Below, piece after piece: positions 28,544-42,898 of a DNA stretch of 64,000 nt. This stretch comes from Candidatus Alcyoniella australis (GTDB taxonomy: Bacteria; Lernaellota; Lernaellaia; JAVCCG01; Alcyoniellaceae), in the NCBI GenBank assembly GCA_030765605.1, contig JAVCCG010000048.1:16565-80564 (forward strand). The letters are read 5' to 3'. The translations under genes and the position numbers were made by a program. The notes beneath the pieces are model-generated. The model worked only from the letters and a program-made list of their open reading frames with translations. It made no database searches and was not told the origin of the DNA. Every line of letters begins with the position of its first letter. Position 1 is the first letter of the stretch.

Positions 28544-28879
28544 TCAGCGGTAGCTGACCAGCCGGTTGCGCTCGAAAATCTGCAACAACTGCATAATGCG
28601 CTGGACCACCGGCTCGACCTCGTCGCCGAAACGTTGCTGCATCTGGTCGCAGATCTGTTGCACGTTGCGCTCTCCGTCGATCAACTTCCAGCAGTAAGCG
28701 CTACGTTCGTCGAGTTTCAGGCTCAGCTGCTCCGAGCGGCGCAGCAGCCTGCCGAAGAATTGCCCGATTTTGGAGCGGAAACGCGGTGCATGGATTACGA
28801 CGCAGCCCGGATCGCCCGTAATATCGGCCGGCCGCTGCAGCGGAACCAGTGTGAGGAAGTTGCGTGGCGCCAGCGCCAC
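28544..28879 (-). CDS. PqqD-like small protein at the end of the OPT operon
   Basis: 111 residues from a GTG at 28879, with an AGGAGG site inside the end of the upstream gene. The C-terminal 60 residues resemble the PqqD fold: LKLDERSAYCWKLIDGERNVQQI followed by helices ending in a short strand (ERNRLVSYR). PqqD-type proteins bind peptides and present them to modifying enzymes. No radical-SAM enzyme or precursor peptide is visible here, so the role is open. It may bind a peptide or protein partner of the transporter. Six bases separate it from the OPT gene, so it is almost certainly co-expressed. Confidence 0.65.
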   Translation of the reverse strand: MALAPRNFLTLVPLQRPADITGDPGCVVIHAPRFRSKIGQFFGRLLRRSEQLSLKLDERSAYCWKLIDGERNVQQICDQMQQRFGDEVEPVVQRIMQLLQIFERNRLVSYR

Positions 28880-28884
28880 GCGGG

Positions 28885-30957
28885 TCAGCCCTCCTCGGTC
28901 CTGGACAAGGCTACCTTGACCAGCATCCAGACGACCACGCCGAGCATGATGATCGGCATCAATCCCTTGGGGTCGAGCTTGAAGAACACCATCGACGCCA
29001 ACAGGATGCCCATAATCGCCTCACCGGCGATCAACCCCGAGGCGAACAGCGTTCCACGGTGGATGCTGTGTTTCGGGTCGTCCCCCTTGCCCTTGGCGCG
29101 TCTGGTGAGGACCAGCGCGATCAGTCCGCCGAAGAGGATCGGCACCGACAGGCTCAACGGCAGATAGATCCCCACGGCAACGGGCATGATGTGCATGCGG
29201 AAGACCTTGCCCGACGAGCGGAGGATCTCGTCGATGGCGATGATCACCACGCCGATGATCGAGCCTGAAATCAGCATGCCCCAGGGCAGGGGAGTCTCGG
29301 TGAAGATCGAGCTGACCAGCGAGGCGAACAGCGTGGCCTGGGGCGCCTTGAGCGGCTGCACCCCCTCGATCACCTCAATGCCGATGCCCGGGTAAGTGTG
29401 CAGCAGGGTCAGGATCGGGGGGATGATCGCCGCCGGAGTGATGACCGCCACGAGCTGCACTGCCTGCTGCTTCCAGGGGGTCGCGCCGACCAGATAACCG
29501 GTTTTCAGATCTTGGCAGATGTCGCCCGAGGTGCAGGCCGCGCAGCACACAACGCCGGCAATGCCCAGCGAGGCGATGATCCCGGCTGTGCCGGTCATCC
29601 CCATCTTCCAAAGCACGGCCGAGGAGAGCAGCACCGTACAGATCGTCATGCCCGACACCGGGCTGTTACTCGATCCGACCAATCCGACAATATAGCTGGC
29701 CACAGCCACGAAGAAGAAGGCTGTGACCACCATCAGCAGACCGGAGATCACACCGATGCCGAAGCTTTTCGTGAGCACGATATAGAGCACGAATATGGGA
29801 ATAATCGTCGCCAGTAGGAAACCGAGGATCGTGGGCAGCGAAAGATCGCGCTCAGTGCGCGACACCGCGCTGCTGCCGTCGGCGTGGGTGGCCTTGCTGT
29901 AGCCGGCCATCGCCCCGCCGATGCCGCGCACGATTCCCTTGCGCACTTTGATGATCGACCAGATGCCGCCGACCACCATCGCGCCCACGCCCAGGAAGCG
30001 GATGCGCGTATCCCAGATGGTCCACATCATGTCCAGGGACGAGTATTCCCCGCCCGAGGACGCGGAGATCAACATTGAGCTCAGCGATAGCTCTTTGGTC
30101 GCGTGGGTCATCTCGGCCACACCCATTGAGCTTTGAGTGAGCATTGCCTGGGCCATGGCCAACGCCGCCTGCGCCGTTCCGGCCGTTGAAGGATCGAAGG
30201 CCAGGGCGTAGCGGGCAATGAAGATCGGAATCGCGGCCAGCCAACCCAGGGCGCCACCGATGAATACCAACAACGAGATATTGAAGCCGACAATGTAGCC
30301 CACGCTGAGCAGGGCCACCGAGACGTCGGTGCCCATGTACAGCGAGACCTGCAGCTTGCCGATCATCCAGACCCAGGCTCCCTCGAGGGTGCCGGCCACC
30401 ATGTTCCAGCCCGAGACCAGGAATTTGAAGATCGCGCCCACGGCCATCGCCTGGAAGATGTAGCTCACCGATACGCCGCCGCGATCGCCCGCCTCGAGCA
30501 CCTCGGCGCAGGCCACGCCCTCGGGGAAGATCAGCTCGGCCTCCTCGACGATCAGCGCCCGACGCAGCGGGATCATGAACAGCACGCCCAGCAGTCCGCC
30601 GAAGATCGCGATCAGGGTCGTAGGCCAGAACTTGAACTCGGTCCAAACGCCGGTGATCACCATCGCCGGGATGGTGAAGATAATGCCCGCGGCCAGACTC
30701 TCGCCTGCCGAGGCGATGGTCTGGACGATGTTGTTCTCGAGAATCGTGGCCTTGCTGAACGCTCCACGCAGAATGCCCATCGAGATCACGGCCGCGGGAA
30801 TCGAGGCCGAGACGGTCATGCCCGCGTACAATCCCAGGTAGGTGTTGGCCGCGGTCATAATCAGCCCGAGTCCGATGCCCAGCAACAGGGCCTTGATCGT
30901 AACCTCGGGAACGGTCCTCTCGGCGGGAATGTAGGGCACGAAGTCGGCTTGGCTCAT
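28885..30957 (-). CDS. OPT-family (oligopeptide/metal-chelate) transporter
   Basis: 690 residues from the ATG at 30957 (GAGGTG ribosome site); an extended frame to 31026 was rejected because it overlaps the neighbour with unlikely sequence. About 14-16 hydrophobic helices. The N-terminal repeat with ANTYLGLYAGMTVSASIPAA, LENNIVQTIASAGESLAAG and EGVACAEVL is characteristic of bacterial OPT proteins. These import peptides, siderophore-like chelates or related solutes using the proton gradient. It is next-to-last of the DUF6754/MutL cluster; the three small membrane proteins upstream are its likely partners. The substrate cannot be inferred. Confidence 0.88.
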   Translation of the reverse strand: MSQADFVPYIPAERTVPEVTIKALLLGIGLGLIMTAANTYLGLYAGMTVSASIPAAVISMGILRGAFSKATILENNIVQTIASAGESLAAGIIFTIPAMVITGVWTEFKFWPTTLIAIFGGLLGVLFMIPLRRALIVEEAELIFPEGVACAEVLEAGDRGGVSVSYIFQAMAVGAIFKFLVSGWNMVAGTLEGAWVWMIGKLQVSLYMGTDVSVALLSVGYIVGFNISLLVFIGGALGWLAAIPIFIARYALAFDPSTAGTAQAALAMAQAMLTQSSMGVAEMTHATKELSLSSMLISASSGGEYSSLDMMWTIWDTRIRFLGVGAMVVGGIWSIIKVRKGIVRGIGGAMAGYSKATHADGSSAVSRTERDLSLPTILGFLLATIIPIFVLYIVLTKSFGIGVISGLLMVVTAFFFVAVASYIVGLVGSSNSPVSGMTICTVLLSSAVLWKMGMTGTAGIIASLGIAGVVCCAACTSGDICQDLKTGYLVGATPWKQQAVQLVAVITPAAIIPPILTLLHTYPGIGIEVIEGVQPLKAPQATLFASLVSSIFTETPLPWGMLISGSIIGVVIIAIDEILRSSGKVFRMHIMPVAVGIYLPLSLSVPILFGGLIALVLTRRAKGKGDDPKHSIHRGTLFASGLIAGEAIMGILLASMVFFKLDPKGLMPIIMLGVVVWMLVKVALSRTEEG

Positions 30958-30973
30958 CGGGACACCTCGCGTA

Positions 30974-31756
30974 TCAGCGCACGACCATGTGCAGCCAATC
31001 TCCGAATAGGAACTCCATCCGACCAATCAGCAGCGAAATACGGCCCATCACGGTATAGCCGAAGCTCGCGCCGAAGGTGACCATCAGCACCATGATTCCG
31101 GCCTTGCTGGCCACTCCGAACGCTCCCTTGTGCTCTTTGCTGAAGAAGAAGTAGACCAAGCCGCAGAGCACTCCGAGGATGATCACGATGTTCGAGAACG
31201 TCTCGCCGACGGAAAACTTGCCCTCGACCATCCCGACCACCGGCAAGATCGTGCTGTAGATCTGGCCCATGAAATCGGAGTTGAAGTAGCTGATCAGGTA
31301 GAAGCCGGCCGTGGCGCCGACCACGAAGCTCAGCGCCCAGCGGCTGAGCCAGCCGATCTTGGGCACCAGCTGCATCAGCAGCAGCATGCCCAGCAGCAGC
31401 GGAATGACGTACCAATAGTTCGGGTCGTTCTCCATCACGCCGGGGATCAGGCTCGAGGTCCAGACCGGCGTGAGCTTGCCGAACAGGTTGGGGATCATCA
31501 CCTGCCACACGCCCAGAGCCATGTAATAGCCGGCGCTGACCCCGATGAACAGGTGCTCGGCAAAGCGGTACAGCGGGTTGTCGCGGTACAAAAAGCTCAG
31601 GATACAGATCGTGAGAAAGGCGCCGATCCAGACCCAGAAGGCATCGTAGCTCGACCAGGGAGCCAGTGCGGGACCGAATGCGGTGTAGAGGACGACCATC
31701 AGCACCAGCACGCCGGCAACGATCCATTCAGTCTTCCGAGTCGTCTTTTCATCCAT
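30974..31756 (-). CDS. Polytopic membrane protein of the DUF6754/OPT cluster
   Basis: 260 residues from the ATG at 31756 (GGAGGT ribosome site); the frame upstream overlaps the neighbour and was not used. About eight membrane helices, beginning WIVAGVLVLMVVLYTAFG, with a conserved-looking AEHLFIGVSAGYYMALG stretch and FVVGATAGFYLISYFN. I do not recognise a named family. It overlaps the upstream 292-residue gene by eight bases (ATGGATGA-type overlap), which suggests tight coupling and perhaps a complex. The protein ends in a short cytoplasmic or periplasmic tail (GDWLHMVVR). A membrane subunit of a transport assembly is the simplest reading. Confidence 0.7.
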   Translation of the reverse strand: MDEKTTRKTEWIVAGVLVLMVVLYTAFGPALAPWSSYDAFWVWIGAFLTICILSFLYRDNPLYRFAEHLFIGVSAGYYMALGVWQVMIPNLFGKLTPVWTSSLIPGVMENDPNYWYVIPLLLGMLLLMQLVPKIGWLSRWALSFVVGATAGFYLISYFNSDFMGQIYSTILPVVGMVEGKFSVGETFSNIVIILGVLCGLVYFFFSKEHKGAFGVASKAGIMVLMVTFGASFGYTVMGRISLLIGRMEFLFGDWLHMVVR

Positions 31757-32627
31757 TGTCACTACCTCCCCTGGCCTGTCTGCGGCGCTCGACGAAGTAG
31801 GTGATGTTTCCCAGCAGAATGAAGGCGACAATCACCAGGTGAGCGATGGCCTGAGGGCTCATGTTACGAATCGCACGCTTGTAGCTGTTGTCGGAGAACC
31901 GCGGGTAGGCGTCGCCCAGCGCCGCCTCGAACTCGGCCGCTCCCTTGAGTCCGCCCATCAGGCCGACCAGCTGGCGCGGGTAGTACGGGTAGAGCAGGGG
32001 AGCCTGGACCGCGGTCGATCCGCCGACGATCGGAATGTTGGCCTTGTCGCCGGCGAACTGGATCCACTCTTTGAGGCCCGGCGTGCCCGCGGAGATGTTG
32101 ATGATCAGATCCATCTGCTGCAGGTTCTGCACGCCCTTCATGATCTCGAGGTCGTTGAGGCTACGCCCCTCGACGTCGGTGAAGTACAGCCCGCGGAAGT
32201 TGGTCAGAACCACGTTGATCACGCCCTGGGCCCCGGATTTAAAGCCCAGGTTGACGTAATCGCGGCCCGATTTGTAGTTGGGAAAATCTTTCTTAATTAC
32301 AGATTCGATGGTGCTCACGGACATCGACTGGCCCATCGGCCACAGCGCCATGATGTAGATCCGATGGTTCTTCTGGCACAGGTGGCGCATCAGCGCGTCG
32401 GCCATCGGCTGCAGCTCGGGCTCGGAGGGCGGGTCGTAGTCGAAGCTGACCAGCACGCGGCTGCCGTCGGGCAGCTCGTCGATGGCGTCGAACACCGCCT
32501 GGACGATCTTGGTCGGCTTCTCGGGAAAATAGACCGGGATCAACAACGGAATGATCACCGACAGAGCGATGCACAGGAAGATCACCCGCCGGTCGATGTT
32601 CATTAATATGTCTAGTACTTTGTTCAT
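31749..32627 (-). CDS. Bitopic protein with extracytoplasmic alpha/beta domain (cluster gene)
   Basis: 292 residues. One helix at about 14-33 and another near the C-terminus (about 260-280, IAHLVIVAFILLGNITYFV) flank a soluble region of about 220 residues with alternating strands and helices: SRVLVSFDYDP, HRIYIMALWPMG, MDLIINISAG and NIPIVGGSTAV. This could be a Rossmann-like or substrate-binding fold, in the periplasm if the first helix is an uncleaved anchor. I do not recognise the family. The AGGAGAA site lies upstream of the ATG. It lies between two polytopic proteins in the operon, so it may be the ligand-recognising part of the assembly. Confidence 0.65.
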   Translation of the reverse strand: MNKVLDILMNIDRRVIFLCIALSVIIPLLIPVYFPEKPTKIVQAVFDAIDELPDGSRVLVSFDYDPPSEPELQPMADALMRHLCQKNHRIYIMALWPMGQSMSVSTIESVIKKDFPNYKSGRDYVNLGFKSGAQGVINVVLTNFRGLYFTDVEGRSLNDLEIMKGVQNLQQMDLIINISAGTPGLKEWIQFAGDKANIPIVGGSTAVQAPLLYPYYPRQLVGLMGGLKGAAEFEAALGDAYPRFSDNSYKRAIRNMSPQAIAHLVIVAFILLGNITYFVERRRQARGGSDNG

Positions 32628-32640
32628 TTTCTCCTCCCCC

Positions 32641-33327
32641 CTATTCGACGTCGGAACCGAGATAGCTGCGTTCCACGCCGAGGATCAGACGCAGCGAGGT
32701 GGAGATGATGCCCAGTGCAATGCCGATCATGATCGCCCGCTGTCCGGCGAGGTTGGGCACGCGCATCACCCAATTGGCCAGGGAGGGTATCGAGAGGAAC
32801 TCCAGGTTCGCAGGCAGCCAGGAGGTGATGTAACTGCCGATGAACGTGCGGCCGATGAGGATGATGAACGCCGAGACCAGCAAGATCGTGGCGTCGCGGT
32901 TCTTGGCGCGGAAGGCGCGGTAGCTCGCGGAGGCCACGTAGAACGCGAGCAGCGCGAACATCGTCGAGCTCAGCGGCGCGAAAATGAACAGATAGACCGT
33001 GTCGAACAGGCTGCCCGCGGCCGTGATTTCGGCCGTGATCCCGCCGGGGTTGCCCAGCTTGAACAAGCCGATGAGCAGGGTGAAGAAAAATCCGGCCAGG
33101 GCCACAACCGCATAGCCCCAGCCCTTGCTGCGCTTGTAGATGCGGTTGCCCATAATCTTGATCAGGTTGCCCGCGCCCAGTACGAAGGCAAACACGGCAA
33201 TGATGTCGAAGAAGACCGAGAACTCCTCGCCGAGGTTGGCGAAGGCGTGATGCGGGATGTAAGCCGAGAGGATCAGGGCCCAGCCCGCGGCGAAGCAGAT
33301 AATAATCGGTATGGTGCGTCGCAGCAT
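32641..33327 (-). CDS. Polytopic membrane protein of the DUF6754/OPT cluster
   Basis: 228 residues with about seven membrane helices: IPIIICFAAGWALILSAYI, FFDIIAVFAFVLGAGNLI, VVALAGFFFTLLIGLF, TVYLFIFAPLSSTMFALLAF and others. A basic cytoplasmic loop (NRIYKRSKGWG) follows the second helix. No named family recognised. It lies 11 bases after the DUF6754 gene and 13 before the next, all on one strand. The retained order of FN3/DUF6754 protein, this protein and the bitopic protein suggests a membrane complex, though this is inference from context. Confidence 0.7.
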   Translation of the reverse strand: MLRRTIPIIICFAAGWALILSAYIPHHAFANLGEEFSVFFDIIAVFAFVLGAGNLIKIMGNRIYKRSKGWGYAVVALAGFFFTLLIGLFKLGNPGGITAEITAAGSLFDTVYLFIFAPLSSTMFALLAFYVASASYRAFRAKNRDATILLVSAFIILIGRTFIGSYITSWLPANLEFLSIPSLANWVMRVPNLAGQRAIMIGIALGIISTSLRLILGVERSYLGSDVE

Positions 33328-33338
33328 GGCCTACCTCC

Positions 33339-36170
33339 TCAGTTCGGAAGGGCGAACAGTTCGCGGAACCAATGGGAGAATCTGACGATCGCGCTGGTCG
33401 ATTCCGGGTTCGCGGAAAGGATGAATTGCGAGATCGTCTCCAGGATGCCTCCGAACACGATGGCGAACATAGCGATTCCCTTGCCGATGTCCTGCCCCTT
33501 GAGGCTTCCCAGCTGTCGGGGCTCGCCCGAGAGGTAGGCCGAGGCTGCGAACAGCTCCTCGCCGATCAAGGTGTAATCGCATGCGGCGATAAAGAACGGC
33601 AGCTGCGCCGGCTGGGCCGTTCCCGCGATCTGGATCGCGCCGATCAGGTTGCCGGTCTCGGCCAGGATCAGCGACTCGGCATAGAACGAGCCGAGGAAAA
33701 AGCAGGTGGCCGGCTTGTCGCGGACCATCATTCCGGTGACGCCGGCCACGTAGCCGAACTGGTCGTCGGTGAGGTAGGTGATGTTGTCCACGTTGTAGGC
33801 GTCGGGACGCCCGGCCTCGAGAAACGCCTCCTTGACCACCTCGCGCGCCGTGGTCATCACCAGCGACTTGGAGGTCGGGACGTTGAGCTGCGTGTCGTGC
33901 TCGGCGATCGTCTTGGCGATGCGCGAGAGGATCGTCAGCGACGCCAGGGTTTGCACGTCGTTGATGTCCATGATCCCCGGGACGAACATGATGTTCTTAC
34001 CCATCTCGGTCGCGCGGCCGATGGCGTCGTCCACCGCCTCGAGCCCGGCGATCTTGCGGATGAACATCTTGCGGCCCTTCTTGGCGTGCTCGATAAAGAA
34101 GATAATCGCAAAACTGATTATCAGCATCACCACGAAGTAGGGCAGCTTGGCCATGTCGAACCACTGCGGGTGGGACTCAACCGCCTCGGCGGTAATCACC
34201 GGATCGCTGGTTACGGCGGAGACCGCCACCACGCGGTAAGCAAACGAAGTGCGGTTGCTCACGTAGAGATCCAGGTACTCGGTGGTTCCAGTGGGCACGT
34301 GGTCGTGCAGCTGGAATTCGCCGGAGTCGATGTTCTCTTTGGTGGCGCGATAGATGTCGTAGCCCGTGACGCCGGCGCGGCCCGCTGAGCCGACCGGATC
34401 GTCAGGGCTGAGATCCCAGGTGATCTTGATCCGACCGCGCATCCGGCTCGCGTCGGTAACGATCGGCACGGCTTGCACGTTGCTCGGCGGCGCGGGCGGC
34501 AGTTTGTCGGTGTAGGCCATGGCCGGCGAGCCGTTATTGGCCAGGACGCTCTCCGAATCGCCTTCGACCTTCTTGACGATAACCAGATAATAGTAAGGCA
34601 CGCCGTCGAGCACATCTTTGTCGTCGATCAGGAAATAGTGATCACGCCCCAGTGCGGGCTGAAGCGCCACCCCCTCAAACGGTAGAGAGGGATCCTCGGA
34701 GCGCAGAACCTCGTAGCCGATGAACGACTCGTCGGGCTGACCCTCATCGAGCGTTTCGTCCGGCGAGGCCCTGAACGAGATCAGAATCCGCGAGCCGAAA
34801 TCGCCGCGCACGTCGCGGGCCAGCACATCTTGGGGCGGGGCGGCGCTGATCGCGGGCTCGACAACTTGCGGCTCCACGGCTGAGGGTTGATCCGCCGCAG
34901 CCTCGGCCGTCGCTGCTGCGTCCCCTGCATCAACATCGACGACGACAGACTCTTCACCGGATTCGGTCGCCTGCTGCTGATCATCAAGCTCTTTGTCCGG
35001 CATAGCGGGCTCGGGCGGGGCCACGTAGGGCTGCTGCGCGGCCACTGCCTGAGCAGTGACCGGATTGTCGACGCTCGTCGCGCCGGTGGTCGTGGTCACC
35101 ACGCGATAGAAATAGGCAACGCCGGGTTGGGCAGTACGGTCGGTCCAGGTCTGCTTGCGCGGCCTTGAGTCCTTGTTGCCCACGGCGTCCACGTCGGCGA
35201 GCAGGTTCGCCGAATCCTCAAGCCCCGCTGAATCGGCGGCGCGATAAACCTGATACGATTCGACTATCTGGCGGTAGAGCCCGTCGTCAGGCGATTTTTC
35301 CCAAGTCAGGTCGATCCCGCCGTTGATCCCCGGCGCGGCCTTGACCCAGTCGCCGGGCTTGGGCGGAGCTACGATCACCGCGCCGGAGCACGCGGTGGGC
35401 TCGGACTCGCCCTGAACCTTGGCCACCACTCGGTAATAGTAAGGTACGGAGTTGGATACGTACTTCGGGTCTTCTTCAACAATTTGCTTGACCGAGGCGT
35501 TGATCAACAGGTAGCGCATGGAGTCTGGAGTCGCCGGTTCGCCGGCCTTGGCCGCGTCCTCGTAGGCTCCGACGTTGAAGCCCAGCAGCTTGGCGGTCTG
35601 ACCCGATGCGAGGGTTCCGATCCAGACTTCCTGATCGAACTCGGGGCTCGCGGAACGGTAGATTTCGTAGCCGTTGACCGCATAGCTGCCGGCGTTGTCG
35701 TCGCTCGAGGCCTGCCAGACCAAGTGGATCGAGTGTCCCGAATCGTTGACCGAGTCAAAGGCGGCCAGCGCCCTGGGAGGCGCCGGTACCGGGATCTGGG
35801 CCGAGATCATGATCGGACCGATCACTGCGGCCTCGCCCGGGCCGTTGGGACCTATTGCTTCAACTTTATAGAAGTAGGGAATGTTCGGCCCCACACCCGA
35901 ATCGCTGAACTCGGTCCGGTCGTACCCCTTGGCTACCTGGACCATCCGGTCGGCGTCAGGGCCGTGAAAGATGTTGTACCCCTTTGCTCCCAGCTCATCT
36001 CCCAAGGGCTCCCACGAGATCAAGATACTGCGGCCGTCCTGGCCGATCTCGGCTTTGAGCCCTGTAGGAGCAGGCAAGTTGTCCTGGGCCAGCGCCGGAT
36101 AGGCAATAAGAGCCAGCGCCGCGCACAGCAGGACAAGGGCAAAGGACATCTTGCGCAGTTGAACGTCCAT
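33339..36170 (-). CDS. FN3-repeat protein with membrane-attached DUF6754-like domain
   Basis: 943 residues. A signal peptide (1-28) is followed by about five fibronectin-III-like domains: roughly 30-125, 130-270, 275-400, 485-600 and 605-665, with typical YFYKVEAIG, YYYRVVAK, YFYRVVTT and FAYRVVAV strands. Domains three and four are joined by an Ala/Pro/Asp/Glu-rich linker. One helix at 676-693 anchors the protein. The remaining 245 residues are cytoplasmic and match what I recall as DUF6754 (AEHDTQLNVPTSKSLVM, GYVAGVTGMMV, AETGNLIGAIQIAGTAQ in its core), with another hydrophobic stretch near 897-918. The layout spans the membrane with extracellular FN3 arms. Function unknown. Confidence 0.75.
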   Translation of the reverse strand: MDVQLRKMSFALVLLCAALALIAYPALAQDNLPAPTGLKAEIGQDGRSILISWEPLGDELGAKGYNIFHGPDADRMVQVAKGYDRTEFSDSGVGPNIPYFYKVEAIGPNGPGEAAVIGPIMISAQIPVPAPPRALAAFDSVNDSGHSIHLVWQASSDDNAGSYAVNGYEIYRSASPEFDQEVWIGTLASGQTAKLLGFNVGAYEDAAKAGEPATPDSMRYLLINASVKQIVEEDPKYVSNSVPYYYRVVAKVQGESEPTACSGAVIVAPPKPGDWVKAAPGINGGIDLTWEKSPDDGLYRQIVESYQVYRAADSAGLEDSANLLADVDAVGNKDSRPRKQTWTDRTAQPGVAYFYRVVTTTTGATSVDNPVTAQAVAAQQPYVAPPEPAMPDKELDDQQQATESGEESVVVDVDAGDAAATAEAAADQPSAVEPQVVEPAISAAPPQDVLARDVRGDFGSRILISFRASPDETLDEGQPDESFIGYEVLRSEDPSLPFEGVALQPALGRDHYFLIDDKDVLDGVPYYYLVIVKKVEGDSESVLANNGSPAMAYTDKLPPAPPSNVQAVPIVTDASRMRGRIKITWDLSPDDPVGSAGRAGVTGYDIYRATKENIDSGEFQLHDHVPTGTTEYLDLYVSNRTSFAYRVVAVSAVTSDPVITAEAVESHPQWFDMAKLPYFVVMLIISFAIIFFIEHAKKGRKMFIRKIAGLEAVDDAIGRATEMGKNIMFVPGIMDINDVQTLASLTILSRIAKTIAEHDTQLNVPTSKSLVMTTAREVVKEAFLEAGRPDAYNVDNITYLTDDQFGYVAGVTGMMVRDKPATCFFLGSFYAESLILAETGNLIGAIQIAGTAQPAQLPFFIAACDYTLIGEELFAASAYLSGEPRQLGSLKGQDIGKGIAMFAIVFGGILETISQFILSANPESTSAIVRFSHWFRELFALPN

Positions 36171-36239
36171 TGGCCTCCCCCGACTTTTCGTTATTTATCG
36201 ACTACGAATGTGTTGGTTCGGTAAGTCTGAATCTGGCGC

Positions 36240-36268
36240 AGAATACGTTACAAATCAGCCTTAGTCAA
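36240..36268 (-). promoter_or_regulatory. Sigma70-type promoter for the FN3/DUF6754-OPT transcript
   Basis: TTGACT (36268-36263) and TATTCT (36245-36240) on the minus strand are separated by exactly 17 bases; hexamer matches are 5/6 and 5/6. The FN3 gene starts about 70 bases downstream. This makes the six downstream genes independently transcribable from the four upstream. Confidence 0.65.
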
Positions 36269-36336
36269 TCCTTCGGCTCAAGACGCATTCGGAATGGGAA
36301 TCGTTAGAAAGTATCCGGATTGGGCGTGTCCGCGGA

Positions 36337-37467
36337 TCAGCTTTCGATCAGCTCGACGTTGGCCCTGGGCACTACCACCTCCGCCCCGTCGGGGAAGCGA
36401 ACCTTGAGGATCCGCGCCTTTGAGCCCGACTCCAGTACGGTCGGCTCCGAGGGCAATCCAGCCACCTCGCCCAGACGGCCGAAGTACGGCTGCCGGATCA
36501 CGCGCACCGGGGATCCGACCTCCAGGCCCATCGTCGCCTCGTGGTGCACTTGGTCGTCGTTGACTACGTCGCTCTCCGCTATGGGGATCACCACCTCGGG
36601 ACGGATCACGCCGGCGCGAATCTGGGTGGCGCCGTTGATGCTCGCCAACCGTCCGGCCTTGGACTTGAACAGCTCGAAGGTCTTGCCCGCCATAGTGATC
36701 TCGCCGAAGCCCTCGGTGACGATCAGCGTAATTCCGAGGTCCTCGTGTCCGGTGATCGCCACGCCCAGGTCGTAACCCAGGAAAGCGACCAAGTCCTTGT
36801 CGTGGAATCCTCCGGAGACAACGCCCGCGGCGCCGACTTCGATCGCCTTGCGCAGGGCCTCGGCGGTCACCAGCTCGCCGCCGATCAGGATCTTGCCCTT
36901 GTGCTCGGGCTTGATCAGGTCGGCGGTAAGCTTCTGCTCGGGCGTTTGGCAGACCATCTCGATCAATCCGTGGGTCTCGCCGCCGATGCCGAAGATGCCC
37001 TGGATGAACGAGGCCCGGCATTCGACCACGCAACCCTCGTCGGGTACGACCTCACAGACCCGGCCGATGATGTAGGCCAACACCTCCACCGGCTTGGGGT
37101 AGCCGCGCAGCAGCACCTGACCGGTGATGTCGGAGATGTTCTCGATCGTGCCTTCCATTGTGGCCTTGGACTCGCTCTTGAACATGCCGAAGAAGGATTT
37201 GGAACGGGCGATGATCTCATCGGCAGAGACCTTGTCGCCGATCTTCTTGAGCATGATGCTCGGAACTTCCTTGGGCTCGACGTTGCACTGCTGGGCCACG
37301 TTGACCAGCGACACGTCTCCGGGAAGATTGGTGCGCGCCACAGCTTGTTCGGGAACGACCTGATCGTCGAGCTTGACCAGCACCTCGCCTTTGAGCGGCA
37401 GGATGCGGCGCTTGCGCACCAGCGTCTGCTCGGTGACCTTGAGACCCGGGGTATATGCGTGAGCCAT
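36337..37467 (-). CDS. Barrel-sandwich/KOW-domain protein of the MutL cluster
   Basis: 376 residues, no signal peptide or membrane helix. The N-terminal half has barrel-sandwich-like (RnfC or RNA-polymerase-like) strands: GEVLVKLDDQVVPEQAVART, KKIGDKVSADEIIARS and ATMEGTIENISDITGQVLLR. The centre has IQGIFGIGGETHGLIEM and a Gly-rich alternating region (LIGGELVTAEALRKAIEVGA) that may be a Rossmann-like core. The last 65 residues are KOW-like: GSPVRVIRQPYFGRLGEVAG ending in VVPRANVELIES. No named function. It has a good AGGAG ribosome site and follows the MutL gene after 11 bases. The pair probably works together. Confidence 0.65.
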   Translation of the reverse strand: MAHAYTPGLKVTEQTLVRKRRILPLKGEVLVKLDDQVVPEQAVARTNLPGDVSLVNVAQQCNVEPKEVPSIMLKKIGDKVSADEIIARSKSFFGMFKSESKATMEGTIENISDITGQVLLRGYPKPVEVLAYIIGRVCEVVPDEGCVVECRASFIQGIFGIGGETHGLIEMVCQTPEQKLTADLIKPEHKGKILIGGELVTAEALRKAIEVGAAGVVSGGFHDKDLVAFLGYDLGVAITGHEDLGITLIVTEGFGEITMAGKTFELFKSKAGRLASINGATQIRAGVIRPEVVIPIAESDVVNDDQVHHEATMGLEVGSPVRVIRQPYFGRLGEVAGLPSEPTVLESGSKARILKVRFPDGAEVVVPRANVELIES

Positions 37468-37478
37468 GGATTAACTCC

Positions 37479-39302
37479 TTACTTGTCCAGTGCGCCGTCG
37501 GGGTAGACCTGCCACTCGATCATCCATTGGGTGATCTTGGCCAGACGGGTATCAACGTCCTCGGGCAACGCCAGCGGACGTCCGCGGCCGTCGAGCAGTA
37601 CGCCCATCGTGCCGCCTTGCACATCGCGTTCGATGGCCACGCCCGAACCCTCGCCCAGGTTGAAACCGCGGGCGGGATTGGCGTGCAGCCGGGCCTTGGT
37701 GTCCAGACCCAGTTCGATCAGCTTGACATCGCCAAATTTGAGCACGCCCTCGTCGATCACCCCCTGATCGCCGACCAGCTTGTAGGTCATGATCTGCTTA
37801 CCCGGCTTGGTGATGCCGGCGGGCGCAATGCACGTGCCCAGGTAGACTAGGCAATCTTTGGTAAAGACCTCGGTGGCGGCCTTGGGATGCACTTCGGCCA
37901 TCACGCCCAGGTGCGGCATCATGAAGATCGAGTCCTTGGCCAGCTGGGTCACGCCCTCGGGCTGGAACGCGTCGATCATCATCATCGCGGTCTGGTTAAA
38001 GCGCGGGGCGTGGCTGAGTACGCCGCCGGAGCCCACCAGCAGGTCCAGCGTCAGCATGTTGACCAGGGTTCCACCGGCGTTGGACTGCTGGAAAGTGTCG
38101 CCGATGGTGCGCTGCTGCTGCACTCCCTTGAGCTTGGTGGCGAAGCTTTTATGCTGCACGAACGCCAGGCGCAGCGCCTCTTTGGCGATCGCCTGCTCAA
38201 AGATCAGCTCCTCCATGCTCTGCGGGATGGTGGTCGGCCGGATCATCTTGTTCTTCACGCGGTTGCGCAGGTCCTCCTCGTCCATCGAGAACGGGACCCA
38301 GCGCATCACGTTGGCCATCCCGGCCTCGGCAAAGACGTTGCTGATCGAGTAGCTCATGCCCAGGTTGGCCGATACCGTGCGGTTGAAGATCCCGGTGAAC
38401 ACCGAAAACACGTCGGTGGTCGCGCCGCCGATGTCAACGCCCACGACCTCGATGTCCTGGATCTCGGCCACGCGCTTGAGGATGTTGCCCACAGCGCCGG
38501 GGGTGGGCATGATCGGCGCGTCGGTCCATTCCATCAGCTTGCGGTAGCCCGGCGCCTGGGCCATCACGTGCTCCATGAACAGATCGTGGATCTTCTCGCG
38601 CGCCGGCAGCAGGTTCTCGACTTCCATCGACGGGCGGATGTTGTCGACCATCGACAGGTCGGTCTTCTCGGCCAGGACCTCCTCGATCTTGTCCCGGGCG
38701 TCCTTGTTCCCGGCGTAGATCACCGGCAGCTTGTAGGCCGATCCCAGGCGCGGCTTGGGGTCGGCGGCCGCCACGATCTCGGCCAGATCGACCACGTGCT
38801 TGATCGTGCCGCCGTCGGCGCCGCCGGAGAGCAAAATCATGTCCGGCCGCAGTTGGCGGATGCGCTCGATCTGCTGGTGGGGCAGGCGCTTGTCGTTGTG
38901 CGCCAGCACGTCCATCACGATCGCGCCCGCGCCCAACGCGGCGCGCTCCGCACTCTCGGCGGTGATCTTGCGCACCACGCCGGTGACCATCATCTGCAGT
39001 CCGCCGCCCGCCGAGCTGGTGCTGATGTAGATGTCGCACCCGCGGTCGCCCTGAGCGGGCTGGATAATCCTGTCGTTTTCGTCGATCAGTTGACGACCGG
39101 CCAGCTCCCCAACCTCGCTCACCGAGTTGAGCACGCCCATGGTCACGTCCTCGAAGGGGGCCTCGACCGTGGTCGGGGACTCGCCGCGATATGTCTGGCG
39201 GTACTCGTCGCCCACCTTTTGGATCATGATCGCCTTGGTGGTCGTGCTGCCGCAGTCCGTGGCCAGGATGACCTTGATGTCATCGGGCTTCAGATCACTC
39301 AT
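37479..39302 (-). CDS. MutL/GlmL-type ASKHA protein (glutamate-mutase-L family)
   Basis: 607 residues from the ATG at 39302. The ASKHA phosphate motifs are visible: ATDCGSTTTKAIM near the N-terminus, LLSGGADGGTI, and VGVDIGGATTDVFSVF in the centre. GSGGVLSHAP follows. The GlmL/MutL family is thought to be an ATPase chaperone reactivating B12-dependent glutamate mutase, usually about 460 residues. This copy is longer, and no mutase (GlmE/GlmS) is present. The annotation 'glutamate mutase' would therefore mislead; it may act on the membrane complex encoded downstream. The ATG overlaps the stop of the preceding gene by eight bases. Confidence 0.85.
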   Translation of the reverse strand: MSDLKPDDIKVILATDCGSTTTKAIMIQKVGDEYRQTYRGESPTTVEAPFEDVTMGVLNSVSEVGELAGRQLIDENDRIIQPAQGDRGCDIYISTSSAGGGLQMMVTGVVRKITAESAERAALGAGAIVMDVLAHNDKRLPHQQIERIRQLRPDMILLSGGADGGTIKHVVDLAEIVAAADPKPRLGSAYKLPVIYAGNKDARDKIEEVLAEKTDLSMVDNIRPSMEVENLLPAREKIHDLFMEHVMAQAPGYRKLMEWTDAPIMPTPGAVGNILKRVAEIQDIEVVGVDIGGATTDVFSVFTGIFNRTVSANLGMSYSISNVFAEAGMANVMRWVPFSMDEEDLRNRVKNKMIRPTTIPQSMEELIFEQAIAKEALRLAFVQHKSFATKLKGVQQQRTIGDTFQQSNAGGTLVNMLTLDLLVGSGGVLSHAPRFNQTAMMMIDAFQPEGVTQLAKDSIFMMPHLGVMAEVHPKAATEVFTKDCLVYLGTCIAPAGITKPGKQIMTYKLVGDQGVIDEGVLKFGDVKLIELGLDTKARLHANPARGFNLGEGSGVAIERDVQGGTMGVLLDGRGRPLALPEDVDTRLAKITQWMIEWQVYPDGALDK

Positions 39303-39738
39303 GGTCACCTCGTTTGCCGCCGCGCCGCGAACGCCTGGATCGACGCTGCTCGGCGTGGGCCGCCTTCTGCTCATCCCGACGCTCCTGCCGGAGCGCCTCG
39401 AAATGGTCTATTCGGTCCAGCAGCAGCTCGACGCTGCCGCGCTTCTCCAACGTCTGGTAAAAGATCGTGTACTCGCGCCAGTCGAACACCCCGCGAATCA
39501 TCGGCTCGAAGAACGCCAGGAGTTGGCTGCCCAGGTAGTTCAGCGGCCGAAGCATTTCGATGAATATCGCGCCCGGCGCGGTCAGGCCCCACTCGACGAT
39601 CTTCTCGGCCAACCTGTCCAACAGCTTGGACTGCTCGTCGGTCAGCTCGAGATCCTCGGGCTTTTCTACGGCAAAGGCGTGGGACAGTCCACTACGCAGC
39701 CGTTTTCGGCGGCTCGGTTGCGCGTCCGGGGCCTTCAC
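39295..39738 (-). CDS. Small basic helical protein of the MutL cluster
   Basis: 147 residues from the GTG at 39738, which overlaps the preceding stop as GTGA. I do not recognise it. After a basic N-terminus there is a helical region with a partly hydrophobic stretch (APGAIFIEMLRPLNYLGSQLL), then FFEPMIRGVFDWREYTIFYQTLEKRGSVE, here quoted in parts of less than a motif length elsewhere. The C-terminus is strongly Arg/Lys-rich (RRSRRSRRGGKRG). The amphipathic middle could lie on the membrane surface. Overlaps on both sides (GTGA before, eight bases after) show it is an integral operon member between the PH-like and MutL proteins. Confidence 0.6.
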   Translation of the reverse strand: MKAPDAQPSRRKRLRSGLSHAFAVEKPEDLELTDEQSKLLDRLAEKIVEWGLTAPGAIFIEMLRPLNYLGSQLLAFFEPMIRGVFDWREYTIFYQTLEKRGSVELLLDRIDHFEALRQERRDEQKAAHAEQRRSRRSRRGGKRGDHE

Positions 39739-40193
39739 TCCGTCTCCCGCGTCTCGCTCGTCGGAGCTTGGCCGGTCGTCTCGATCCTTTGGCGGATGAA
39801 TCGCAGCACCTCCTCGCGGGGCGTATGTGCAGCCCATCGCAGAAAGAACCCGCGAAAATTCTCCAGGCGCGAACGCCTGGCGAACGGGCTGAGGAACACC
39901 CCACGGCGTTCGGGGTAGATCCGCTTGATCGAACTCCAGGCGACGCTGCGCTCGAAGAACAGCAGCCTGCTGCGCACCCCGTGCTCGTCGAGCGTAAAGA
40001 CCACCGGCATAAAGAATTCCCTGACGCCGATCGCCACCACCAGCGCCCCGAAAATCCCCCAATAGACTGAATTTCCCAGGGCCCAGACGGTCCAAAACAC
40101 CGCGAGCAGACACAGTACAAAGAGCACTGCCTTGCCCGGCTGAGAAGCGATTGGCAACACTGTCCAGCGATAGTCGACGGACTCGTCACCCAC
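39735..40193 (-). CDS. Membrane protein with bacterial PH-like domain, first gene of MutL cluster
   Basis: 152 residues from the GTG at 40193, chosen because GGAGG lies six bases upstream; a GTG at 40208 is possible. Two adjacent membrane helices occur near the N-terminus (AVLFVLCLLAVFWTVWALG, VYWGIFGALVVAIGV). A strand-rich region follows, with VFTLDEHGVRSRLLFFERSVAWSSI split across the PH-like core and RGVFLSPFARRSRLENFRGFFL. This resembles bPH/YdbT-type small membrane proteins. The final helix is soluble. Role unknown; the promoter at 40229-40257 drives it with a leader of about 30 bases. Confidence 0.65.
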   Translation of the reverse strand: MGDESVDYRWTVLPIASQPGKAVLFVLCLLAVFWTVWALGNSVYWGIFGALVVAIGVREFFMPVVFTLDEHGVRSRLLFFERSVAWSSIKRIYPERRGVFLSPFARRSRLENFRGFFLRWAAHTPREEVLRFIRQRIETTGQAPTSETRETE

Positions 40194-40228
40194 TTCAGCC
40201 CTCCGCACTTCCGGCCAAGGCCGGCCAA

Positions 40229-40321: not shown

Positions 40322-40921
40322 TTAGCCAAGCAGGACGCTTGATTCACAGGTTTTAACCCCTGCCTCTGCGAGCTCTCTGAGGGCATGTTCTCCGCCCGCG
40401 GCCGTAACCGGGGCCACTGCATCGGTCAGCAGCGTGACCTCGTAGCCACACTCGATCAGGCCCAGGCAGGCGGCTTTAACGCAGTAGTCCGTGGCGACTC
40501 CGAAGACCACGGCATGGCCGCGGCCGACCGAACGCAGGATCGTCTCGGCCTGCGGATTGGCAAACAGACTGAACACCGGGCTTTCGATCACCGGCTCGAC
40601 CCCGGGTTGGTAAAGATAGTTCCCGGGCTCGCAACTGATCCGCTGATGGGGCTCGATCACGGACTGCGGGATCTTTTCCGCACCCGGCGTCCCTCTGACG
40701 CAATGCGGCGGGAACTGCTCGAACTCCGGATCGTCCGGGGCGTGGGCGTCGACGCTGGCCACGATCGGCACGCTGTTTTCAACGGCGAAGCGCACCAGCC
40801 GCTCGATGGTCGGAATCAGCGCGTCGGCTCCGGGCACGTAAAGCGCTCCGTTGGGCAGCATGAAGTCGTTTTGGGTATCCACATCCACCAACATAATTTC
40901 GCCAAGATCGATCATCGTCAT
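40322..40921 (-). CDS. Nicotinamidase/isochorismatase-family hydrolase
   Basis: 199 residues. Catalytic Asp15 is in VDVDTQNDF, metal ligands Asp58 and His60 are in SVDAHAPDD, His73 in FPPHCVRGTPG, and nucleophile Cys147 in GVATDYCVKAA. This layout fits a nicotinamidase, turning nicotinamide into nicotinate. The third catalytic residue, a Lys normally before the xFxxF strand (as in EKQTF-type motifs), reads IESPVFSLF, so Ser stands where Lys is expected. The ATG overlaps the stop of the phosphoribosyltransferase gene (ATGA), so the two salvage enzymes are co-translated. The first ATG is followed by another two codons later. Confidence 0.8.
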   Translation of the reverse strand: MTMIDLGEIMLVDVDTQNDFMLPNGALYVPGADALIPTIERLVRFAVENSVPIVASVDAHAPDDPEFEQFPPHCVRGTPGAEKIPQSVIEPHQRISCEPGNYLYQPGVEPVIESPVFSLFANPQAETILRSVGRGHAVVFGVATDYCVKAACLGLIECGYEVTLLTDAVAPVTAAGGEHALRELAEAGVKTCESSVLLG

Positions 40922-42237
40922 TCCTCCACGATCTTCAGCCCGGGATCAACGCGCACGTCGTACTCCAAACGCGCGTCAAGGTGCCTGGCCGATTCCGGAA
41001 GTTTGCCCAGCTGTTCTGCGGCGCGTTGCTTAATGCTCTCAAGCGACGGTCGGCCCTCGATCCGCCGTCCGCTCTCCATCACATCGACGAGTTGGGGGCT
41101 CGCTGTTGCGGGACCCGGATCGCCGCGCCTTGTCAGCAGATCGTACAGCGGGAGGCCCTGTTGGTCTGTCGCCCGCCAGACCTGCTTGGCCCAGGGCAGG
41201 GTGGCCTTATCAGTGCTGTTCTTGTACGCCGGTTGAGTTTGGCCGTCGCGCTGGATCTGCACCAGCTTGTACACGCCGGAAAGATTGGGCGCGTCCGCGC
41301 TGGTGACCATCTGGGTGCCCACGCCGAACAGGTTGATCGACGCGCCCGAGCTGAGCAGCTTGTCGATGCGGTACTCGTCCAGATCGGAGCTGGCCACGAT
41401 CTTGGTCGCTTGCATTCCGGCTTGGTCGAGGATCGCGCGCACCTCGTTGGAGGAACGCACCAGGTCGCCCGAGTCAATGCGCACGCCGGTCACCTGCGGA
41501 CCGAACGAGGCGGCGATCCGCGCTCCGGCCAGGGTGTCGTAGGTATCGATCAACAGAGTCGCGTTGTGCGGGAAGTCGCGCAGATAAGCGGCAAAGGCGC
41601 GTTGCTCGTCGCCGTAGGCCATGATCTGGCTGTGGGCCACTGTGCCGAAAATCGGCACGTCGAAACGCTGTCCGGCCTCGACGTTGCTGGTGCCCGCGCA
41701 CCCACCGATGAAGCAGGCGCGCGCCGCGAGTACCGCGGCCTCGGGCCCGTGGGCGCGACGGCTGCCAAAGTCGACCACCGCGCGACCGCGCGCCGCCGAG
41801 CAAATGCGGCTGGCCTTGGTGGCGATCATCGTCTGGAAAGTGATCTGACTCAGCAGGTAGGTCTCGACTATCTGCGCCTCGATCAACGGTGCGCGCACCT
41901 GCAGCAGCGGCTCGCCCGCGAACGCCACTCCGCCCTCGGGAATCGCGCTGACCGAGCCGCTGAAACGCAGCTCCGCGAGCATCTCGAAAAATGAGGGCGC
42001 TACATCGGCGAACACCGGGTGCGATCGTAGGTAGTCGATCTGGTCGCCGGTGAAATGCAGGTTCTCCAGAAAATCCAGGGCCTGCTCCAGCCCGGCGACC
42101 AACAGGTAGTTGCGTTTGGGCGGCAGCTTGCGCACGAACAGCTCGAAGCAGGCCTGATCGCAAAAGCCCGACTGATGGTAGGAGGCGGCCATGGTCAGCT
42201 CGTAGAGATCGGTCAGCAACGCGCCGTGCCCCGACAT
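40918..42237 (-). CDS. pncB: Nicotinate phosphoribosyltransferase
   Basis: 439 residues from the ATG at 42237; an ATG at 42255, overlapping the upstream stop by eight bases, is equally possible. The N-terminus LLTDLYELTMAASY and the phosphoribosyl region with VVDFGSRRAHGPEA (catalytic His in the RRAHG loop) and FGTVAHSQIMAYGDE are characteristic. FGVGTQMVTS closes the PRPP site. The enzyme joins nicotinate and PRPP to give nicotinate mononucleotide in the cytosol, in the Preiss-Handler route to NAD. The downstream nicotinamidase provides its substrate. Confidence 0.93.
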   Translation of the reverse strand: MSGHGALLTDLYELTMAASYHQSGFCDQACFELFVRKLPPKRNYLLVAGLEQALDFLENLHFTGDQIDYLRSHPVFADVAPSFFEMLAELRFSGSVSAIPEGGVAFAGEPLLQVRAPLIEAQIVETYLLSQITFQTMIATKASRICSAARGRAVVDFGSRRAHGPEAAVLAARACFIGGCAGTSNVEAGQRFDVPIFGTVAHSQIMAYGDEQRAFAAYLRDFPHNATLLIDTYDTLAGARIAASFGPQVTGVRIDSGDLVRSSNEVRAILDQAGMQATKIVASSDLDEYRIDKLLSSGASINLFGVGTQMVTSADAPNLSGVYKLVQIQRDGQTQPAYKNSTDKATLPWAKQVWRATDQQGLPLYDLLTRRGDPGPATASPQLVDVMESGRRIEGRPSLESIKQRAAEQLGKLPESARHLDARLEYDVRVDPGLKIVEE

Positions 42238-42247
42238 TGCTGTCCGC

Positions 42248-42898
42248 TCATCCATCAGTTGCACTGGATCGCTGTGGAGCAAACGCGGATGTGCTCGGCT
42301 GTTCCAGGGTTCCGCTGGCTGTAATGTCGTCGGCATTGCCCAGCCGGCGGTCAGGACCCGAGGAACGCAAAACGAACCGATCGCCCTCACATTCGAGCTT
42401 CAACCGGCAACCCCAGGGGTCGCGCAACGGGATCTCTCGATAGAATGTAAAGCTGCGGTCGTTCTCAAGGTATACTACCAAGCCGTTCCAGAGGCCGTAA
42501 CCAAAGACCGTTTCAGCCACGCAGGGAAACTGCGTGCAAGAATCGATCGCTTCGTACCGGGCATGCACGGCCGTGTAGCCGCTGGCGAGCTGGTCGAGCA
42601 TCAGCTCGGTCGCCACGCTCTGGATACGCCTGGTGTGTCCGCCCTGGACGATGGCGGCCAGTCCGACCACGAACGTCGCCGCCAGACACAGCGTCAGCAT
42701 CGCGGGCTTGAACACCGGCCGCCGCGTGCGCCAAAGTCCGACCACGCAGGCAGCAATTCCGGCGAAGACCACCGGGTAGATCAGCGCCTGATCGTAGTTC
42801 ACGCCCACGGCCACGCGGGTCGTCCAGGCCAACACCAACAGCGGCGTGAGCCAGGGAATCGAGCGTTCCACCAGTCCGGCGCTGCGTTCGGGCATCAT
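42248..42898 (-). CDS. Membrane protein with GspG-like pseudopilin C-terminal domain
   Basis: 216 residues. Three hydrophobic segments lie at about 15-33, 38-55 and 65-85. The third is followed by a long amphipathic helix (RRIQSVATELMLDQLASGYT) and a small beta domain containing DPWGCRLKLECEGDRFVLRSSGPDRR and NADDITASG, closely resembling the GspG signature DPWGxxY...SxGxDxxxGxxDDI of type II secretion pseudopilins (quoted in pieces). There is no prepilin peptidase site, so it is not a classical pseudopilin. It may be a membrane-fixed derivative. Overlaps of four bases upstream (ATGA) place it in the pncB transcript. Confidence 0.65.
   Translation of the reverse strand: MMPERSAGLVERSIPWLTPLLVLAWTTRVAVGVNYDQALIYPVVFAGIAACVVGLWRTRRPVFKPAMLTLCLAATFVVGLAAIVQGGHTRRIQSVATELMLDQLASGYTAVHARYEAIDSCTQFPCVAETVFGYGLWNGLVVYLENDRSFTFYREIPLRDPWGCRLKLECEGDRFVLRSSGPDRRLGNADDITASGTLEQPSTSAFAPQRSSATDG

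What the first reader, a model, noticed from the sequence alone, without database searches (positions are those of the whole stretch)
28544..40208. Candidate undescribed membrane system: MutL-like ATPase, KOW/barrel-sandwich protein, FN3-DUF6754 protein, membrane proteins and OPT transporter
Ten same-strand genes are closely spaced or overlapping: PH-like membrane protein, small basic protein, MutL/GlmL homologue, barrel-sandwich/KOW protein, FN3-DUF6754 protein, three membrane proteins, OPT transporter, PqqD-like protein. GlmL is known only as a partner of B12-dependent glutamate mutase, yet no mutase subunit is here. An ASKHA ATPase that recharges or assembles a membrane complex fits the context. 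The FN3 arms and the bitopic alpha/beta protein would face outward and could capture a ligand for the OPT permease.
Basis: partly seen in the sequence, partly recalled or inferred. Interest (0 to 1): 0.82.

Follow-up and report, generated by a model that had tools for sequence, protein, structure and literature searches.

The report
Undescribed eight-gene bacterial membrane system
A set of eight genes, four for proteins of the inner membrane and four that go with an ATPase resembling a vitamin-B12-enzyme repair factor, is inherited together across many little-studied bacterial phyla although no B12 enzyme is near it, which points to a widespread cell-envelope machine that nobody appears to have described.

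Summary
The ten genes are really there, tightly packed on the minus strand. Eight of them form a conserved system; the OPT transporter and PqqD-like genes do not belong to it. Module A is PH-like, small basic protein, MutL-type ATPase and KOW protein. Module B is DUF6754, a 6-TM protein, a two-TM protein with an outside alpha/beta domain, and a 5-6-TM protein. Module B keeps its order in over 100 loci, and A plus B run in one row in Planctomycetota and Fermentibacteria (rearranged elsewhere). Of 241 whole genomes, 65 have DUF6754, 62 the KOW protein and 62 the long MutL; 61 have all three. MutL and KOW are fused in five genomes. The MutL is not GlmL: it misses every GlmL cut-off, has an extra C-terminal domain, forms a separate clade, and no glutamate mutase is found in this genome or 40 others. 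The KOW protein is predicted to have an RraA-like swivelling domain and a KOW domain; DUF6754 a cytosolic Rossmann-like domain, with FN3-like arms outside. My best reading is an ATP-driven MutL/KOW chaperone pair acting on a four-protein inner-membrane complex. The conserved system is well supported; the mechanism and cargo are inference.

The parts
39735..40193 (-). module A gene 1: PH-like membrane protein, two N-terminal membrane helices then a soluble domain (true start uncertain, GTG 40208 or 40193)
   Evidence: bPH_6 below cut-off; 23 homologous ORFs, next to sm/MutL
39295..39738 (-). module A gene 2: small charged soluble protein, no Pfam or NCBIfam match
   Evidence: (39 homologous ORFs)
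37479..39302 (-). module A gene 3: long MutL-type ASKHA ATPase (PF13941) with an extra C-terminal domain of about 120 residues; ATP motifs DCGSTTTK, DIGGATTD and GSGG intact
36337..37467 (-). module A gene 4: KOW protein; beta-rich (barrel-sandwich-like) N-terminal part, RraA-like swivelling domain (130-297), C-terminal KOW domain
33339..36170 (-). module B gene 1: signal peptide/first helix, five FN3-like repeats, TM helix, cytosolic Rossmann-like DUF6754 domain, C-terminal helices
32641..33327 (-). module B gene 2 (t6): six-helix membrane protein, no known family
31749..32627 (-). module B gene 3 (b7): two membrane helices framing an outside alpha/beta domain of about 225 residues, no known family
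30974..31756 (-). module B gene 4 (t8): five- to six-helix membrane protein, no known family
28885..30957 (-). OPT-family transporter, packed against t8 here but NOT part of the conserved system
28544..28879 (-). PqqD-like small protein (RRE-type), packed against OPT here but NOT part of the conserved system

Best explanation
It is an undescribed two-module envelope system. Module B (DUF6754, t6, b7, t8) forms one inner-membrane complex: b7's alpha/beta domain and the FN3-like arms of the DUF6754 protein lie outside the membrane, and the Rossmann-like DUF6754 domain lies in the cytosol. Module A supplies a soluble ATP-driven pair, the long MutL and the KOW protein, which work together as an ASKHA ATPase plus swivelling domain, in the manner of B12-dehydratase reactivases, and which bind the cytosolic face of the membrane complex to assemble, gate or reset it; the PH-like and small proteins hold the pair at the membrane. 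Shown: the gene set, its co-inheritance, MutL-KOW fusion, separation from GlmL, intact ATP motifs. Inferred: the physical complex, the topology, and ATP-driven assembly, gating or resetting. The cargo is not known; transport or export of an envelope compound is my guess.
For: Module B is kept in the same four-gene order in over 100 loci, often as two or three tandem copies. Modules A and B share genomes almost without exception: 61 of 241 have all three markers; MutL and KOW lie within 3 kb in 45 of the 61, and DUF6754 within 4 kb of one of them in 28. Both orders A-B and B-A occur, so linkage was re-formed (L094, L125 against L142, L151, L098). MutL and the swivelling part of KOW are fused in five genomes. 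No Met_asp_mut_E over the cut-off in 41 genomes. ATP motifs intact. KOW model: RraA-like Z 9.4, rmsd 4.5, 131 residues; DUF6754 model pLDDT 92 with a Rossmann-like domain between helices; positive-inside topology.
Against: No experiment or complex prediction shows that the eight proteins meet. Three genomes keep DUF6754 without KOW or long MutL (G063, G082, G222) and one keeps KOW without long MutL (G013), so module A may be dispensable, or these genomes are incomplete. No fusion joining module A to module B was seen. Fold matches are of middling Z and show no function. Neighbouring genes differ between phyla, so no cargo is indicated.
Confidence: 0.35

Rival explanations
1. Long MutL and KOW are a reactivase for a B12 or other radical enzyme encoded elsewhere, and their linkage to module B is secondary.
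For: The family's known members (GlmL, Or-4) sit beside B12 mutases. ASKHA plus swivelling domain is the layout of diol dehydratase reactivase (from memory). MutL-KOW fusions and the divergent pair in G036/G183 stand away from module B with no common neighbour.
Against: Presence of long MutL and KOW follows DUF6754 almost exactly, which a stand-alone repair factor for a common enzyme would not do. No glutamate mutase over the cut-off in 41 genomes. Long MutL is a separate clade with an extra domain.
Confidence: 0.2
2. Peptide or metal-chelate uptake system in which module B captures a ligand for the OPT permease.
For: OPT follows t8 by 16 nt here; another OPT lies just upstream of module B in G005; oligopeptide ABC transporter genes lie upstream of module B in L142 and L151.
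Against: Close relatives of the window's OPT are unlinked in G001, G004, G005, G006 and G224, and the G005 neighbour is a distant frameshifted paralogue. Three of 14 genomes searched have no OPT at all but have the system (G009, G018, G230). The transporters found differ between phyla.
Confidence: 0.08
3. Energy-coupled outer-membrane transport or motility complex, in which module B works with ExbB/ExbD/TonB-type motors.
For: In WOR-3 and Fermentibacteria loci, ExbB-, ExbD- and TonB-like genes and TonB-receptor-like genes follow module B on the same strand; MotA_ExbB matches 3 downstream neighbours.
Against: Seen in only part of the phyla; not seen beside the system in Planctomycetota or in the window. 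Motor genes are common in these genomes.
Confidence: 0.15
4. A defence system against phage.
For: Undescribed membrane and ATPase genes conserved together; patchy between distant phyla.
Against: No PADLOC model matches any of the ten proteins; a mostly single module A per genome and tandem paralogues of module B are unlike defence islands.
Confidence: 0.03

Closest known systems
GlmL/MutL, accessory protein of B12-dependent glutamate mutase (NF040745, TIGR01319), and Or-4 of ornithine aminomutase (NF040744)
   Same: Same Pfam family PF13941 and the same ATP motifs; presumed ATP-driven chaperone (GlmL is called a chaperone for reactivation of glutamate mutase in PMC4682846).
   Different: About 120 residues longer, scores below all three NCBIfam cut-offs, separate clade, no mutase beside it, almost always in genomes with KOW and DUF6754.
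Diol/glycerol dehydratase reactivase (DdrA/DhaF), from memory
   Same: ASKHA ATPase working with a swivelling beta/beta/alpha domain; here the swivelling domain is in the partner protein, fused to MutL in five genomes.
   Different: The swivelling domain resembles RraA, the partner also has a KOW domain, and the likely client is a membrane complex, not a B12 enzyme.
DUF6754 (PF20539)
   Same: The domain in module B gene 1, 412 bits.
   Different: Only a name in Pfam; no paper with the name was found, and no function or gene set is on record there.
RraA fold and NusG/Spt5 KOW domains
   Same: Middle and C-terminal parts of the KOW protein (Z 9.4, rmsd 4.5, 131 residues; and about Z 8-9 over 50-60 residues).
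   Different: Low sequence identity, different overall architecture; no reason yet to think of RNA.

Membership tests
GlmL (glutamate mutase accessory protein) | score over the curated NCBIfam cut-off (NF040745 475 bits; TIGR01319 204) | tested here: not met
   242.6 and 192.7 bits
GlmL (glutamate mutase accessory protein) | encoded next to GlmS/GlmE mutase subunits | tested here: not met
   no mutase among the ten genes or in the own genome; short MutL controls do have it
GlmL (glutamate mutase accessory protein) | ASKHA ATP-binding motifs | tested here: met
   DCGSTTTK, DIGGATTD, GSGG conserved
GlmL-related ornithine degradation protein Or-4 | NF040744 cut-off 600 bits and ornithine aminomutase neighbour | tested here: not met
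   208.4 bits; no such neighbour among the ten genes
MutL family PF13941 (broad) | score over Pfam gathering cut-off | tested here: met
   430 bits against 27, whole profile covered
B12-enzyme reactivase (DdrA/DhaF type) | ASKHA ATPase together with a swivelling beta/beta/alpha domain | tested here: inconclusive
   RraA-like swivelling domain in the KOW protein, fused to MutL in five genomes; no direct comparison with a reactivase structure
B12-enzyme reactivase (DdrA/DhaF type) | ATP-dependent exchange of damaged cobalamin on a client enzyme | not testable with these tools
   needs biochemistry
OPT-dependent uptake system | OPT permease conserved with the binding/membrane proteins | tested here: not met
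   close OPT relatives unlinked in five genomes; OPT not found in G009, G018, G230
known anti-phage defence systems | match to a PADLOC model | tested here: not met
   none for ten proteins

The most novel reading that the evidence does not exclude
A new class of bacterial envelope machine, spread over a dozen or so phyla without model organisms, in which an ASKHA ATPase of the B12-reactivase type has been turned to driving a four-protein inner-membrane complex through a separate swivelling/KOW partner.
Probability: 0.4. Interest if true: 0.85.

Novelty: categorically new. Interest (0 to 1): 0.66.

Why it matters
At least 578 loci in one named genome collection and about a quarter of a broad genome sample carry DUF6754, the marker of a system for which no paper was found (open-access library only). 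It would show an ASKHA reactivase-type ATPase working on a membrane complex, not on a B12 enzyme, and it warns that 'GlmL/MutL' annotation in these genomes does not mean glutamate fermentation. A Gimesia MAG carries all but the PH gene in one row (L099), so cultured planctomycetes of that kind offer a test bed.

Tried and rejected
OPT as the core: rejected. PqqD as part: seen only in the window. Glutamate mutase nearby or in the genome: none. Defence: no PADLOC match. NAD salvage genes just upstream (40322-42390) as part of the set: not found beside it in other loci. Idea that b7 and DUF6754 are ancient duplicates because both end in similar GTA...L[IL]G...AA motifs: profile comparison gave no support. 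Sequence searches of b7, t8, DUF6754, t6 and MutL against solved structures: nothing convincing (t6 to a Mrp antiporter subunit at E 0.12 is chance level). Neighbour census for a cargo: only lineage-specific neighbours, PPDK, MotA_ExbB, DUF4388, Opp, Gcv. Context of the MutL-KOW fusions: no common neighbour. Papers on DUF6754, PF13941, PF20539: none in the library. The careful MutL tree did not finish; the quick tree was used.

Full report
Observation. The window holds ten genes on the minus strand from about 40200 down to 28544. At their likely starts, all but one of the gaps are under 17 nt, and several genes overlap. Pfam recognises MutL (430 bits), DUF6754 (412), OPT (334) and PqqD (37); the KOW protein, t6, b7 and the small protein have no Pfam family, and the PH-like protein and t8 only matches below cut-off.

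Conservation splits the run into parts. I fetched the surroundings of MutL and DUF6754 from class-mates and distant genomes and from 79 named loci. Profile searches of all open frames show module B, DUF6754-t6-b7-t8, in that order and strand in over 100 loci, often as two or three tandem copies in Zixibacteria. Module A, PH-small-MutL-KOW, is likewise kept, though the PH-like gene is the least conserved or least detectable. In Planctomycetota and Fermentibacteria all eight can run in one row; in Riflebacteria-like loci (L142, L151) and L091/L098/L106 module B comes first. In the window's own class the modules lie at separate places in every relative examined, so the joined form in the window is not the only state.

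Co-inheritance. In 241 whole genomes, mostly one per family across bacteria, DUF6754 is in 65, KOW in 62, long MutL in 62 and all three in 61 (Fisher p below 1e-50 for each pair; relatedness is not corrected for, but the genomes span about 190 families). MutL and KOW are within 3 kb in 45 of 61 and DUF6754 within 4 kb of one of them in 28 of 61, against a chance of about 0.2% for any two genes. In five genomes MutL and the swivelling part of KOW form one frame of about 860-1015 residues, with no shared neighbour. None of the 14 well-known control genomes has DUF6754.

The MutL is not GlmL. It falls below the cut-offs of NF040745, NF040744 and TIGR01319, has an extra C-terminal domain of about 120 residues and intact ATP motifs, and lies in a clade apart from short MutLs (quick tree, several long branches). 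Short MutLs serve as control: five of the nine examined sit beside glutamate mutase (L176, L177, L178, L180) or ornithine aminomutase (L174) subunits, and an ornithine aminomutase alpha subunit lies nearby in a sixth, L179. In the window's genome and 40 others no Met_asp_mut_E gene reaches the cut-off.

OPT and PqqD. OPT follows t8 by 16 nt in the window, but its close relatives in G001, G004, G005, G006 and G224 are elsewhere in the genome, and three carriers of the system have no OPT. The OPT next to module B in G005 is about 34% identical over 151 residues and frameshifted. PqqD was found only in the window.

Structure. The KOW protein was predicted at mean pLDDT 87 from 35 sequences: residues 130-297 align with RraA (Z 9.4, rmsd 4.5, 131 residues) and the last 60 with NusG/Spt5 KOW domains. 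DUF6754 was predicted at pLDDT 92 from 51 sequences: an alpha/beta Rossmann-like domain between membrane helices, best Z 11.7 (rmsd 3.4, 139 residues) with a Sir2 enzyme, then many Rossmann folds at Z 8-10; this is a fold class, not a function. Hydropathy with charge puts the FN3-like arms and the b7 domain outside and the DUF6754 domain inside. Five FN3-like repeats in the arm align to each other, though Pfam fn3 does not score.

Mechanism. The simplest reading is one inner-membrane complex (module B) with a soluble ATP-driven pair (MutL and KOW) acting on its cytosolic side, as ASKHA reactivases act on B12 enzymes. Shown: gene set, co-inheritance, fusion, ATP motifs, absence of mutase. Inferred: complex, topology, ATP-driven assembly, gating or resetting. 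The cargo is open; neighbours differ by lineage (ExbB/ExbD/TonB-like genes in WOR-3 and Fermentibacteria, oligopeptide ABC transporter and chain-length-determinant-like genes in Riflebacteria-like loci).

Novelty. No paper in the library names DUF6754, PF20539 or PF13941; GlmL is described there only as a reactivating chaperone of glutamate mutase (PMC4682846). The library is open-access only, so an earlier description cannot be excluded.

Noticed in passing
window 40322-42390 (-): Nicotinamidase-like and nicotinate phosphoribosyltransferase-like genes overlap each other directly upstream of the cluster on the same strand (named by eye from the translation); no homologue was found beside the system in other loci.
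   Followed up: yes
L155, L156, L157, L158, L159: Natural MutL-KOW fusion proteins of about 860-1015 residues that lack the C-terminal KOW domain, in genomes that also keep separate MutL and KOW genes; no common neighbour.
   Followed up: partly
L057 (G037): A short MutL with no mutase subunit recognised nearby, flanked by luciferase-like monooxygenase and ABC transporter genes; another possible off-mutase use of the family.
   Followed up: no
L132, L133 (WOR-3): Module B is followed on the same strand by a DUF4388-like protein, two roadblock-looking proteins, two small membrane proteins, ExbB-, two ExbD- and a TonB-like gene.
   Followed up: partly
L051-L053 and L162 (G013): Three copies of module B and one KOW gene but no MutL in a genome rated 100% complete.
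   Followed up: no
L084, L090, L111, L136 (Zixibacteria and an FCB-group MAG): A secreted-looking protein of about 250 residues sits between MutL and KOW in several loci.
   Followed up: no
window 28544-28879 (-): Stand-alone PqqD-like (RRE) protein packed behind the OPT gene; a nearby RiPP precursor or radical SAM gene was not looked for.
   Followed up: no
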